64,000 bases of DNA, taken from Siphonodentalium dalli. Its lineage: Eukaryota > Mollusca > Scaphopoda > Gadilida > Siphonodentaliidae. Position numbers and translations under genes: made by a program. Below are positions 223 to 57,400 of this stretch, piece by piece (within the stretch, counting starts at the first letter, position 1; every line of letters begins with the position of its first letter). The notes under the pieces are model-generated. The model made no database searches and was not told the DNA's origin. It saw nothing but the letters and a program-made list of their open reading frames with translations. The stretch covers positions 6,952,734 through 7,016,733 of the forward strand of contig CP136061.1 of assembly GCA_032622095.1 (NCBI GenBank). The letters are read 5' to 3'.

Positions 223-270
223 GCGGAGGGTATATTCTGTATAAACGATCACTTAGAGAAACTCATGTTT
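223..270 (+). pseudogene. Truncated upstream duplicate of the X1 exon start
   Basis: After an AG at 221-222 this stretch repeats the first 48 nt of exon X1 (287-334), with 5 substitutions. It reads [16 protein letters not shown] against [16 protein letters not shown]. It then runs directly into the pyrimidine tract and AG of the real acceptor. The offset is 64 bp. It is a decoy acceptor plus partial exon; it cannot replace X1 because the rest of the exon is missing. Two of the five differences change the protein (Ala for Val, Cys for Tyr), so it is not under the same constraint. Confidence 0.9.
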
Positions 271-286
271 TGTTTTTCTTTTGTAG

Positions 287-51400: not shown

Positions 51401-54400
51401 TTAATTAGCATCATGTTAATCATTAAATCTCGATTACGTGGAAGTACTGAACGATATGGAGGCGAAAGGAATCAGTATTAGAGTGGCTTCACCCAAGCTC
51501 GTCATGGAAGAGGTATGTTTAATTAGCATCATGTTAATCATTAAATCTCGATTACGTGGAAGTACTGAACGATATGGAGGCGAAAGGAATCAGCATTAGA
51601 GTGGCTTCACCCAAGCTCGTCATGGAAGAGGTATGTTTAATTAACATCATGTTAATCATTAAATCTCGATTACGTGGAAGTACTGAACGATATGGAGGCG
51701 AAAGGAATCAGTATTAGAGTGGCTTCACCCAAGCTCGTCATGGAAGAGGTATGTTTAATTAGCATCATGTTAATCATTAAATCTCGATTACGTGGAAGTA
51801 CTGAACGATATGGAGGCGAAAGGAATCAGCATTAGAGTGGCTTCACCCAAGCTCGTCATGGAAGAGGTATGTTTAATTAACATCATGTTAATCATTAAAT
51901 CTCGATTACGTGGAAGTACTGAACGATATGGAGGCGAAAGGAATCAGCATTAGAGTGGCTTCACCCAAGCTCGTCATGGAAGAGGTATGTTTAATTAACA
52001 TCATGTTAATCATTAAATCTCGATTACGTGGAAGTACTGAACGATATGGAGGCGAAAGGAATCAGTATTAGAGTGGCTTCACCCAAGCTCGTCATGGAAG
52101 AGGTATGTTTAATTAGCATCATGTTAATCATTAAATCTCGATTACATGGAAGTACTGAACGATATGGAGGCGAAAGGAATCAGCATTAGAGTGGCTTCAC
52201 CCAAGCTCGTCATGGAAGAGGTATGTTTAATTAGCATCATGTTAATCATTAAATCTCGATTACGTGGAAGTACTGAACGATATGGAGGCGAAAGGAATCA
52301 GCATTAGAGTGGCTTCACCCAAGCTCGTCATGGAAGAGGTATGTTTAATTAGCATCATGTTAATCATTAAATCTCGATTACATGGAAGTACTGAACGATA
52401 TGGAGGCGAAAGGAATCAGCATTAGAGTGGCTTCACCCAAGCTCGTCATGGAAGAGGTATGTTTAATTAGCATCATGTTAATCATTAAATCTCGATTACG
52501 TGGAAGTACTGAACGATATGGAGGCGAAAGGAATCAGCATTAGAGTGGCTTCACCCAAGCTCGTCATGGAAGAGGTATGTTTAATTAACATCATGTTAAT
52601 CATTAAATCTCGATTACATGGAAGTACTGAACGATATGGAGGCGAAAGGAATCAGCATTAGAGTGGCTTCACCCAAGCTCGTCATGGAAGAGGTATGTTT
52701 AATTAGCATCATGTTAATCATTAAATCTCGATTACGTGGAAGTACTGAACGATATGGAGGCGAAAGGAATCAGCATTAGAGTGGCTTCACCCAAGCTCGT
52801 CATGGAAGAGGTATGTTTAATTAACATCATGTTAATCATTAAATCTCGATTACATGGAAGTACTGAACGATATGGAGGCGAAAGGAATCAGCATTAGAGT
52901 GGCTTCACCCAAGCTCGTCATGGAAGAGGTATGTTTAATTAACATCATGTTAATCATTAAATCTCGATTACATGGAAGTACTGAACGATATGGAGGCGAA
53001 AGGAATCAGCATTAGAGTGGCTTCACCCAAGCTCGTCATGGAAGAGGTATGTTTAATTAGCATCATGTTTAATCATTAAAACCTGATGAAACATGGAACG
53101 GGTATGTTTAATTAGCATCATGTTAATCATTAAATCTCGATTACGTGGAAGTACTGAATGATATGGAGGCGAAAGGAATCAGTATTAGAGTGGCTTCACC
53201 CAAGCTCGTCATGGAAGAGGTATGTTTAATTAACATCATGTTTAATCATTAAATCTCGATTACATGGAAGTACTGAATGATATGGAGGCGAAAGGAATCA
53301 GCATTAGAGTGGCTTCACCCAAGCTCGTCATGGAAGAGGTATGTTTAATTAGCATCATGTTAATCATTAAATCTCGATTACGTGGAAGTACTGAACGATA
53401 TGGAGGCGAAAGGAATCAGCATTAGAGTGGCTTCACCCAAGCTCGTCATGGAAGAGGTATGTTTAATTAACATCATGTTAATCATTAAATCTCGATTACA
53501 TGGAAGTACTGAACGATATGGAGGCGAAAGGAATCAGCATTAGAGTGGCTTCACCCAAGCTCGTCATGGAAGAGGTATGTTTAATTAGCATCATGTTAAT
53601 CATTAAATCTCGATTACGTGGAAGTACTGAACGATATGGAGGCGAAAGGAATCAGCATTAGAGTGGCTTCACCCAAGCTCGTCATGGAAGAGGTATGTTT
53701 AATTAGCATCATGTTAATCATTAAAAGCTCGTCATGGAAGAGGTATGTTTAATTAACATCATGTTAATCATTAAATCTCGATTACGTGGAAGTACTGAAT
53801 GATATGGAGGCGAAAGGAATCAGCATTAGAGTGGCTTCACCCAAGCTCGTCATGGAAGAGGTATGTTTAATTAGCATCATGTTAATCATTAAATCTCGAT
53901 TACGTGGAAGTACTGAACGATATGGAGGCGAAAGGAATCAGCATTAGAGTGGCTTCACCCAAGCTCGTCATGGAAGAGGTATGTTTAATTAGCATCATGT
54001 TAATCATTAAATCTCGATTACGTGGAAGTACTGAACGATATGGAGGCGAAAGGAATCAGCATTAGAGTGGCTTCACCCAAGCTCGTCATGGAAGAGGTAT
54101 GTTTAATTAGCATCATGTTAATCATTAAATCTCGATTACATGGAAGTACTGAACGATATGGAGGCGAAAGGAATCAGCATTAGAGTGGCTTCACCCAAGC
54201 TCGTCATGGAAGAGGTATGTTTAATTAACATCATGTTAATCATTAAATCTCGATTACGTGGAAGTACTGAACGATATGGAGGCGAAAGGAATCAGCATTA
54301 GAGTGGCTTCACCCAAGCTCGTCATGGAAGAGGTATGTTTAATTAACATCATGTTAATCATTAAATCTCGATTACGTGGAAGTACTGAACGATATGGAGG

Positions 54401-57400
54401 CGAAAGGAATCAGCATTAGAGTGGCTTCACCCAAGCTCGTCATGGAAGAGGTATGTTTAATTAACATCATGTTAATCATTAAATCTCGATTACATGGAAG
54501 TACTGAACGATATGGAGGCGAAAGGAATCAGCATTAGAGTGGCTTCACCCAAGCTCGTCATGGAAGAGGTATGTTTAATTAACATCATGTTAATCATTAA
54601 ATCTCGATTACATGGAAGTACTGAACGATATGGAGGCGAAAGGAATCAGCATTAGAGTGGCTTCACCCAAGCTCGTCATGGAAGAGGTATGTTTAATTAA
54701 CATCATGTTAATCATTAAATCTCGATTACGTGGAAGTACTGAACGATATGGAGGCGAAAGGAATCAGCATTAGAGTGGCTTCACCCAAGCTCGTCATGGA
54801 AGAGGTATGTTTAATTAGCATCATGTTAATCATTAAATCTCGATTACATGGAAGTACTGAACGATATGGAGGCGAAAGGAATCAGCATTAGAGTGGCTTC
54901 ACCCAAGCTCGTCATGGAAGAGGTATGTTTAATTAACATCATGTTAATCATTAAATCTCGATTACGTGGAAGTACTGAACGATATGGAGGCGAAAGGAAT
55001 CAGCATTAGAGTGGCTTCACCCAAGCTCGTCATGGAAGAGGTATGTTTAATTAACATCATGTTAATCATTAAATCTCGATTACATGGAAGTACTGAACGA
55101 TATGGAGGCGAAAGGAATCAGCATTAGAGTGGCTTCACCCAAGCTCGTCATGGAAGAGGTATGTTTAATTAACATCATGTTAATCATTAAATCTCGATTA
55201 CATGGAAGTACTGAACGATATGGAGGCGAAAGGAATCAGCATTAGAGTGGCTTCACCCAAGCTCGTCATGGAAGAGGTATGTTTAATTAGCATCATGTTA
55301 ATCATTAAATCTCGATTACGTGGAAGTACTGAACGATATGGAGGCGAAAGGAATCAGCATTAGAGTGGCTTCACCCAAGCTCGTCATGGAAGAGGTATGT
55401 TTAATTAGCATCATGTTAATCATTAAATCTCGATTACATGGAAGTACTGAACGATATGGAGGCGAAAGGAATCAGCATTAGAGTGGCTTCACCCAAGCTC
55501 GTCATGGAAGAGGTATGTTTAATTAACATCATGTTAATCATTAAATCTCGATTACGTGGAAGTACTGAACGATATGGAGGCGAAAGGAATCAGTATTAGA
55601 GTGGCTTCACCCAAGCTCGTCATGGAAGAGGTATGTTTAATTAACATCATGTTAATCATTAAATCTCGATTACGTGGAAGTACTGAACGATATGGAGGCG
55701 AAAGGAATCAGCATTAGAGTGGCTTCACCCAAGCTCGTCATGGAAGAGGTATGTTTAATTAACATCATGTTAATCATTAAATCTCGATTACATGGAAGTA
55801 CTGAACGATATGGAGGCGAAAGGAATCAGCATTAGAGTGGCTTCACCCAAGCTCGTCATGGAAGAGGTATGTTTAATTAGCATCATGTTAATCATTAAAT
55901 CTCGATTACATGGAAGTACTGAACGATATGGAGGCGAAAGGAATCAGCATTAGAGTGGCTTCACCCAAGCTCGTCATGGAAGAGGTATGTTTAATTAACA
56001 TCATGTTAATCATTAAATCTCGATTACGTGGAAGTACTGAACGATATGGAGGCGAAAGGAATCAGCATTAGAGTGGCTTCACCCAAGCTCGTCATGGAAG
56101 AGGTATGTTTAATTAACATCATGTTAATCATTAAATCTCGATTACGTGGAAGTACTGAACGATATGGAGGCGAAAGGAATCAGTATTAGAGTGGCTTCAC
56201 CCAAGCTCGTCATGGAAGAGGTATGTTTAATTAGCATCATGTTAATCATTAAATCTCGATTACATGGAAGTACTGAACGATATGGAGGCGAAAGGAATCA
56301 GCATTAGAGTGGCTTCACCCAAGCTCGTCATGGAAGAGGTATGTTTAATTAGCATCATGTTAATCATTAAATCTCGATTACGTGGAAGTACTGAATGATA
56401 TGGAGGCGAAAGGAATCAGCATTAGAGTGGCTTCACCCAAGCTCGTCATGGAAGAGGTATGTTTAATTAACATCATGTTAATCATTAAATCTCGATTACG
56501 TGGAAGTACTGAACGATATGGAGGCGAAAGGAATCAGCATTAGAGTGGCTTCACCCAAGCTCGTCATGGAAGAGGTATGTTTAATTAACATCATGTTAAT
56601 CATTAAATCTCGATTACGTGGAAGTACTGAACGATATGGAGGCGAAAGGAATCAGCATTAGAGTGGCTTCACCCAAGCTCGTCATGGAAGAGGTATGTTT
56701 AATTAACATCATGTTTAATCATTAAATCTCGATTACATGGAAGTACTGAATGATATGGAGGCGAAAGGAATCAGCATTAGAGTGGCTTCACCCAAGCTCG
56801 TCATGGAAGAGGTATGTTTAATTAACATCATGTTAATCATTAAATCTCGATTACGTGGAAGTACTGAACGATATGGAGGCGAAAGGAATCAGCATTAGAG
56901 TGGCTTCACCCAAGCTCGTCATGGAAGAGGTATGTTTAATTAGCATCATGTTAATCATTAAATCTCGATTACGTGGAAGTACTGAACGATATGGAGGCGA
57001 AAGGAATCAGCATTAGAGTGGCTTCACCCAAGCTCGTCATGGAAGAGGTATGTTTAATTAGCATCATGTTAATCATTAAATCTCGATTACATGGAAGTAC
57101 TGAACGATATGGAGGCGAAAGGAATCAGCATTAGAGTGGCTTCACCCAAGCTCGTCATGGAAGAGGTATGTTTAATTAGCATCATGTTTAATCATTAAAA
57201 CCTGATGAAACATGGAACGGGTATGTTTAATTAGCATCATGTTTAATCATTAAAAGCTCTTCATGGAAGAGGTATGATTATTTATGCAGCATGTTCAATC
57301 ATTATAACTTAACGAAACATGGAAGAGGTGAGGTATCTTTATAATAAAATTAACAAGTTTTTGAGTTTCTTTAGAAACTTCTTCTCAAAGATTCTCTTTT

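What the first reader, a model, noticed from the sequence alone, without database searches (positions are those of the whole stretch)
223..57330. Tandem arrays in one gene repeatedly built from its own exon/intron junctions
Seen directly: of the 12 RTCB exons, X1, X2, X3, X5, X6, X7, X9 and X10 each have tandem copies of an edge. Every copy includes exon sequence, the splice site and adjoining intron. X4, X6, X7 and X8 also have decayed single copies. Arrays lie on the donor side (X1, X2, X3, X5, X9, X10) or the acceptor side (X6, X7), with units of 20, 33, 46, about 50, 56, about 80, 85 and 118 bp, so they are unrelated in sequence yet alike in placement. Known: duplications across a splice junction leave an intact exon and are tolerated. 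Inference: the locus, or the genome, has a process that starts tandem duplication at splice junctions (slippage or end-joining in exposed R-loops, or conversion with spliced cDNA). I know of no description of such a pattern.
Basis: partly seen in the sequence, partly recalled or inferred. Interest (0 to 1): 0.95.

Follow-up and report, generated by a model that had tools for sequence, protein, structure and literature searches.

The report
Minisatellites straddling splice sites ("mirages")
In this animal genome, short stretches that bridge the end of an exon and the start of the neighbouring intron are often copied in tandem, about 294 times at one exon of the RTCB gene; repeats of this kind were described earlier in amphioxus under the name "mirages", so the kind is known but its scale here is unusual.

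Summary
The window holds 12 exons of an RTCB gene that join into one open frame. Tandem arrays straddle the donor of X1, X2, X3, X5, X9 and X10 and the acceptor of X6 and X7; the X3 array is 25 kb with 294 copies. It is not special to RTCB: in 197 exons sampled from eight other gene families, 17 tandem arrays straddle a junction, and those read as letters show the same anatomy. Counted by event, arrays across donors exceed uniform placement (13 seen, 4.7 expected); acceptors do not (4 seen, 3.1 expected). Counted by base, junctions show no excess. Arrays thicken toward chromosome ends in the first 177 exons, and RTCB lies 7 Mb from an end; a follow-up set of 20 exons supported this only in part. 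RTCB stays an outlier (8 of 12 exons) but was picked after the fact. Two-copy arrays tend to have microhomology at their ends, so slippage or microhomology-mediated duplication, filtered by splicing, is the likeliest cause. The claim that nothing like it is described is wrong: amphioxus "mirages" are this. What may be new is the scale, the donor excess and an unexplained 12-bp intron part.

The parts
408..501 (+). X1 donor array, 46 bp x2 (exon part 26, intron part 20; 2 bp microhomology)
3063..4273 (+). X2 donor array, 80 bp x15 (exon part 14 bp)
5914..30909 (+). X3 donor array, 85 bp, 294 copies, 25 kb; of 288 copies walked, 243 keep GTACGT at the splice position; the first unit, whose exon part is the functional exon end, is identical to the consensus
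35449..35740 (+). X5 donor array, 33 bp x8 plus a decayed tail; lies in an open frame (35210-35719) that is the exon's frame
37937..38440 (+). X6 acceptor array, 56 bp x9; the last copy runs into the exon
38785..39591 (+). X7 acceptor array, 47 bp; TRF gives 96% matches for the part next to the exon (39411-39591) and 76% for the distal part (38785-39401)
44289..44363 (+). X9 donor array, 20 bp x3.8
50702..57329 (+). X10 donor array, 50-bp and composite 118-bp units; the exon part of the array consensus differs from the functional exon at 2 of 86 bases
217..270 (+). decayed copy of the start of X1, upstream of the exon
35025..35051 (+). decayed copy of part of X4 (exon sequence only)
35205..35245 (+). 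decayed copy of the X5 acceptor edge
38652..38711 (+). decayed copy of the X6 donor edge
39765..39850 (+). decayed copy of the X7 donor edge
41310..41387 (+). decayed copy of the X8 acceptor edge
287..63943 (+). RTCB exons X1-X12: 287-433, 3028-3076, 5760-5967, 34549-34598, 35358-35464, 38410-38569, 39571-39746, 41969-42157, 44189-44299, 50600-50719, 60178-60220, 63879-63943

Best explanation
These are exon-intron boundary minisatellites, the kind called 'mirages' in amphioxus. Step 1 (supported): a stretch of some 20-90 bp is duplicated in tandem, often between short microhomologies, by slippage or microhomology-mediated repair, at many places in the genome and probably more often toward chromosome ends. 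Step 2 (inferred): the pair grows and is homogenised by unequal exchange or further slippage, up to hundreds of copies. Step 3 (inferred, fits the data): selection removes duplications inside exons; those that straddle a junction leave one complete exon with a splice site at the outer edge of the array, so the mRNA can stay unchanged and the array can grow into the intron. Donor-side arrays seem better tolerated, or more often made, than acceptor-side ones. Step 4 (weakly supported): the copy joined to the exon is kept by selection while copies farther away decay.
For: Arrays and anatomy. The same structure in CCT, proteasome, tRNA-synthetase, kinesin and myosin genes. In 177 exons, arrays away from junctions per kb by distance to the contig end: 1.00 (0-5 Mb, 8 exons only), 0.51 (5-25), 0.39 (25-50), 0.21 (50-75), 0.17 (75-100), 0.25 (100+), Spearman p=6e-4; junction arrays per exon 0.25, 0.15, 0.11, 0.02, 0.06, 0, p=0.026. 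Follow-up set of 20 exons under 20 Mb from ends: 4 junction arrays, 0.50 other arrays per kb, against 4 in 114 exons 50 Mb or more inside, p=0.017. Microhomology in 26 arrays of about two copies: 2 bp or more in 16 (62%) against 18% under the null, 4 bp or more in 10 (38%) against 2%; without five rows of 2.3-2.5 copies, which inflate the length, 11 and 5 of 21. Exon-internal arrays are nearly absent: one exon, L095, of 197 (a second row so classed, L169, has no donor call). Donors 13 and acceptors 4 of about 195 each, p=0.04. Divergence from the functional copy rises with distance in 11 of 13 arrays with at least 4 other copies. Amphioxus mirages: both boundaries, units of 10-160 bp, splicing reported as unharmed, length unstable (PMC3087553, passages).
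Against: RTCB exceeds even the chromosome-end rate: 8 of 12 exons against 9 arrays in 48 exons, p=4e-4, explained here only by after-the-fact choice. The donor excess is not predicted by a process blind to junctions. Five of 16 donor arrays have an intron part of exactly 12 bp, which random breakpoints do not predict. The follow-up test is weak: I had written down a cut at 12 Mb and two families and then used 20 Mb and other families for want of hits; at under 12 Mb the junction arrays are 4 in 11 exons but other arrays only 0.27 per kb, below the 0.5 predicted; three of the 20 exons come from two kinesin genes already sampled and two are paralogs; with these dropped it is 2 of 16 against 4 of 114, p=0.16. 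In one search only X3 is significant on its own. No transcripts, reads or population data were available, so correct splicing and copy-number instability are untested.
Confidence: 0.68

Rival explanations
1. No junction effect at all: minisatellites arise blindly, some happen to cover a junction, and RTCB is the extreme tail noticed among many windows.
For: By base, control junction 30-mers are copied in 19 of 350 cases against 524 of 7550 intron positions. In RTCB itself the flanking intron positions are copied nearly as often as the junctions when its arrays are counted (66 of 244 and 100 of 241 against 9 of 23), though only 11-13% when the junction arrays are left out. The gradient toward chromosome ends would raise the local rate at RTCB.
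Against: By event, donor arrays are 13 against 4.7 expected; for arrays at least 95% alike, after removing loci that share sequence, donors are 6 against 1.2 and acceptors 3 against 0.9, so slower decay of junction arrays does not explain it. RTCB p=4e-4 at the end-zone rate.
Confidence: 0.3
2. A splicing- or transcription-coupled process (R-loops at the 5' splice site, bound U1, stalled polymerase) makes donors mutational hot spots for tandem duplication, with a favoured breakpoint about 12 bp into the intron.
For: Donor excess without a clear acceptor excess; intron part exactly 12 bp in 5 of 16 donor arrays from five genes (two CCT, two kinesin, one proteasome), p=6.5e-4 for any value shared by five under uniform breakpoints; units lean to the exon side (mean intron fraction 0.36, KS p=0.07; one of the 16 values, L098, was read by eye).
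Against: Microhomology marks arrays at junctions and elsewhere, and in one +12 case (L149) the breakpoint lies at a 7-bp direct repeat (my reading). None of the six RTCB donor arrays has 12. The numbers are small and the 12-bp pattern was found after the fact.
Confidence: 0.12
3. The arrays are selected for, for instance as reserve splice sites or regulators of RTCB splicing.
For: 243 of 288 X3 copies walked keep GTACGT; the X5 array lies in an open frame.
Against: Units are unrelated between exons and such arrays occur in other genes too; several RTCB arrays have decayed outer ends; young homogenised copies would keep the splice site anyway.
Confidence: 0.03
4. Assembly artefact.
For: A 25-kb array of 98% alike units is hard to assemble, and its copy number could be wrong (inference).
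Against: Small arrays of 2-9 copies with distinct variants, in many loci, and decayed old copies are not expected from assembly errors.
Confidence: 0.03

Closest known systems
[quoted passage not shown]
   Same: Units straddle a splice junction, 5' or 3'; unit lengths overlap (10-160 bp there, 20-118 bp here); many copies keep AG/GT signals; uneven homogenisation along the array
   Different: In the passages seen, reported gene by gene with few copies (6 and 3 in the two BflGb6 haplotypes); here 8 of 12 exons of one gene, up to 294 copies, and 17 arrays in 197 sampled exons. Splicing and instability were shown there and are not testable here. Whether this host is a cephalochordate is unknown.
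Human IFI6 (G1P3, 6-16) minisatellite providing multiple splice donor sites (Turri 1995, seen only as cited in PMC4526556)
   Same: Tandem repeat at an exon edge whose copies act as splice donors
   Different: There repeat units are used as alternative donors; use of copies here is unknown
[quoted passage not shown] potato RdRp, PMC4974935, passages; review PMC3443670, passages); human variable tandem repeats at exon-intron boundaries that may form new introns (PMC2812944, passages)
   Same: Tandem duplication across an intron-exon boundary; the potato case started from such a unit
   Different: No new intron is seen here: the 12 RTCB exons join into one frame with the copies left out

Membership tests
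mirage (exon-intron boundary minisatellite) | tandem repeat whose unit spans an exon-intron boundary | tested here: met
mirage (exon-intron boundary minisatellite) | both 5' and 3' boundaries can be affected | tested here: met
   RTCB 6 donor and 2 acceptor arrays; control exons 13 donor and 4 acceptor
mirage (exon-intron boundary minisatellite) | uneven homogenisation, array boundary less alike | tested here: inconclusive
   rho above 0 in 11 of 13 arrays, only X3 significant singly
mirage (exon-intron boundary minisatellite) | regular splicing is not disturbed | not testable with these tools
   no RNA; only an open frame of the joined exons
mirage (exon-intron boundary minisatellite) | length polymorphism, germline or somatic | not testable with these tools
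   one assembly, no reads
mirage (exon-intron boundary minisatellite) | host is a cephalochordate (the hosts in the papers seen) | not testable with these tools
   genome unnamed: 2.23 Gb in 9 contigs
Introner or transposon-borne intron | similar sequence in many introns | tested here: not met
   by reading, each unit is made of its own exon edge and units differ between exons and genes; a genome search with the X3 unit came back unscored
Rogers-type intron gain | duplication creates a new intron | tested here: inconclusive
   the 12 exons join in frame with the copies left out, but intron positions were not compared with other species

The most novel reading that the evidence does not exclude
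5' splice sites in this genome are themselves mutational hot spots for tandem duplication, with a favoured breakpoint 12 bp into the intron, which points to a transcription- or splicing-coupled source of minisatellites.
Probability: 0.12. Interest if true: 0.8.

Novelty: new member of a known kind. Interest (0 to 1): 0.45.

Why it matters
In the papers I saw, boundary minisatellites are reported gene by gene, in amphioxus. A genome in which about one sampled exon in twelve carries one (17 arrays in 197 exons), and one gene carries hundreds of copies, offers a natural test of how the spliceosome picks one donor among hundreds of copies, of how introns grow, and of whether such arrays seed new introns. 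The donor excess and the gradient toward chromosome ends can be tested directly by a whole-genome count.

Tried and rejected
Base-level enrichment test: gave no enrichment at control junctions; it is reported, not discarded. It counts long and dispersed repeats as background, hence the event test. Weak rows in the event test: L004 overlaps the exon by only 6 bp, the limit set; in L167 the called donor is probably the second copy (my reading). With strong splice sites only, donors are 6 against 2.0, p=0.013. Whole-genome motif test: pairs of CAGGTAAGT at 20-50 bp gave 1950 matches against 610 for the reversed control; not used, because a few large arrays dominate the listed matches and single-site rates are unknown. 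The DNA search for the X3 unit came back not scored, so whether that unit also lies elsewhere is not known. Kinase hits were not used: most of the listed matches lie in one cluster of near-identical open frames. Rows dropped: hits in one long open frame, taken as intronless (2 of 53 CCT, 1 of 20 proteasome, 4 of 31 tRNA-synthetase); from kinesin 58 of 123 and from G-alpha 22 of 31 hits were used (stops, near-identical paralogs, letter budget). The 20 end-zone exons were picked by position, leaving out most full-domain hits and paralogous copies; one paralogous pair (L183, L185) and three exons of kinesin genes already sampled (L188-L190) were kept. In the 12-bp test L167 and L102 were left out as ambiguous and one of L183/L185 was dropped. 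In one search I gave 17 arrays (7 of 8 RTCB arrays, 10 of 17 control arrays); 13 had enough copies. Species: not identified.
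Full report
What is there. The window holds twelve exons of RTCB, the RNA ligase, on the + strand. They were placed with a human sequence recalled from memory, and when joined they form one open frame of 475 codons including the stop. Tandem arrays straddle the donor of X1, X2, X3, X5, X9 and X10 and the acceptor of X6 and X7. 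The largest runs 25 kb with 294 copies of an 85-bp unit, 54 bp of exon end and 31 bp of intron. Of 288 copies walked, 243 keep the hexamer GTACGT at the splice position, and the first unit, whose exon part is the functional exon end, is identical to the consensus. Together the arrays make up about 34.6 kb of 64 kb (my sum). Decayed copies lie by X1, X4, X5, X6, X7 and X8; that of X4 contains no splice site.

Is it RTCB or the genome? Splice sites were called from the profile match, the open frame and simple consensus scores, without transcripts. Seventeen TRF arrays straddle a called junction in these 197 exons, 13 at donors and 4 at acceptors. Fourteen examples read as letters, 11 donor and 3 acceptor, show exon edge, splice site and intron start repeated, in CCT, proteasome, tRNA-synthetase, kinesin and myosin genes; in one, the myosin exon L186, the repeat is nearly all exon sequence.

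Enrichment, both ways. By base, junction 30-mers have a copy in 19 of 350 cases (donors 13 of 175, acceptors 6 of 175) against 524 of 7550 intron positions 60-400 bp away; RTCB has 9 of 23. That shows no enrichment in the controls. By event, allowing an array to reach into the exon by at most one unit and otherwise placing it uniformly, 13 donor arrays are seen where 4.7 are expected (p=6e-4) and 4 acceptor arrays where 3.1 are expected. After removing loci that share sequence (143 of 197 kept), donors are 8 against 3.0 (p=0.008) and acceptors 4 against 2.2 (p=0.17); among arrays at least 95% alike, donors are 6 against 1.2 (p=8e-4) and acceptors 3 against 0.9 (p=0.06). The excess is therefore not due to slow decay of old junction arrays. 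It is modest, rests on few events, and appears only in the event count.

Where on the chromosome. In the first 177 exons, arrays away from junctions fall from 1.00 per kb within 5 Mb of a contig end (8 exons) to about 0.2 per kb beyond 50 Mb, and junction arrays fall too. RTCB lies 7 Mb from the end of a 277-Mb contig. I wrote down a prediction for exons within 12 Mb of ends, found too few hits, and took 20 exons within 20 Mb from other families. There were 4 junction arrays and 0.50 other arrays per kb, against 4 junction arrays in 114 interior exons (Fisher 0.017; 0.06 with one paralog dropped). At the cut first written down, 11 exons, the junction arrays are 4 but other arrays only 0.27 per kb, so that half of the prediction failed; leaving out exons of genes already sampled and one of the paralogs gives 2 of 16, p=0.16. 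The gradient is thus likely but not secured. RTCB, with 8 of 12 exons, still exceeds the end-zone rate of 9 arrays in 48 exons (p=4e-4), but it was chosen because it was striking.

How it works. Arrays of about two copies have microhomology at their ends more often than random duplications would: at least 2 bp in 16 of 26 against 18% under the null, at least 4 bp in 10 of 26 against 2%; without five rows of 2.3-2.5 copies, 11 and 5 of 21. Several of the 26 are parts of the X10 array. Junction arrays are among them with 1-5 bp (L084, L120, L183, L189, X1). In kinesin L149 a 7-bp direct repeat between exon and intron marks the breakpoints (my reading). This fits slippage or microhomology-mediated duplication, followed by growth through unequal exchange (inferred). 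Arrays within exons are almost absent (one exon, L095, of 197), as expected if selection removes them, while a unit across a junction leaves one complete exon and a splice site at the outer edge. Acceptor arrays may be rarer because the spliceosome tends to take the first AG after the branch point (general knowledge, not tested here). Copies diverge from the functional one with distance in 11 of 13 arrays, though only X3 is significant singly, as expected if only the exon-joined copy is under selection.

What does not fit. The intron part of the unit is exactly 12 bp in 5 of 16 donor arrays, in two CCT, two kinesin and one proteasome gene, with units of 34-63 bp; under uniform breakpoints any value shared by five has p=6.5e-4. 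It was noticed after the fact and none of the six RTCB donor arrays shows it.

What is known. Tandem repeats across exon-intron boundaries are described in amphioxus as 'mirages', in Adh, globin, TnC and PGBD5 genes, with splicing reported as unharmed and length unstable (PMC3087553 and PMC3902484, passages read). The Adh paper itself is not held. The human IFI6 gene has a minisatellite that supplies several splice donors (as cited in PMC4526556), and human tandem repeats at exon-intron boundaries have been linked to new introns (PMC2812944, passages). In ten paper searches I noticed no genome-wide count of such arrays and no report of a chromosome-end gradient for them; I saw listings and passages only, in an open-access library. 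The host species is not known to me.

Noticed in passing
control loci L035, L022, L089, L107, L149: The intron part of the duplicated donor unit is exactly 12 bp in five genes (two CCT, two kinesin, one proteasome) with different unit lengths.
   Followed up: partly
G000, 177 sampled exons: Tandem array density away from junctions rises from about 0.2 per kb in chromosome interiors to 1.0 per kb in the last 5 Mb, the latter from 8 exons; a follow-up supported it only in part.
   Followed up: partly
G000:C2:149.83-150.60 Mb: Tandem cluster of near-identical kinase open frames, mostly 281 codons, often 2.4-2.9 kb apart; about 96 of the 135 kinase matches listed (my count).
   Followed up: no
G000:C4:274.2-275.5 Mb: Cluster of about eleven myosin head genes; several matches there and at C4:221-224 Mb sit in open frames of about 860-1550 codons, which may mean stop-free tandem arrays in introns.
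   Followed up: no
G000:C1:95.77 Mb and C1:231.98-232.01 Mb: Large tandem arrays whose unit contains a consensus splice donor CAGGTAAGT.
   Followed up: no
window 35210-35719: The 33-bp X5 donor array lies in an open frame that is the exon's frame, so use of an inner donor would add 11-residue repeats rather than shift the frame.
   Followed up: no
window 63439-63833: A 41-bp x9.6 array ends about 45 bp before the X12 acceptor without including exon sequence.
   Followed up: no
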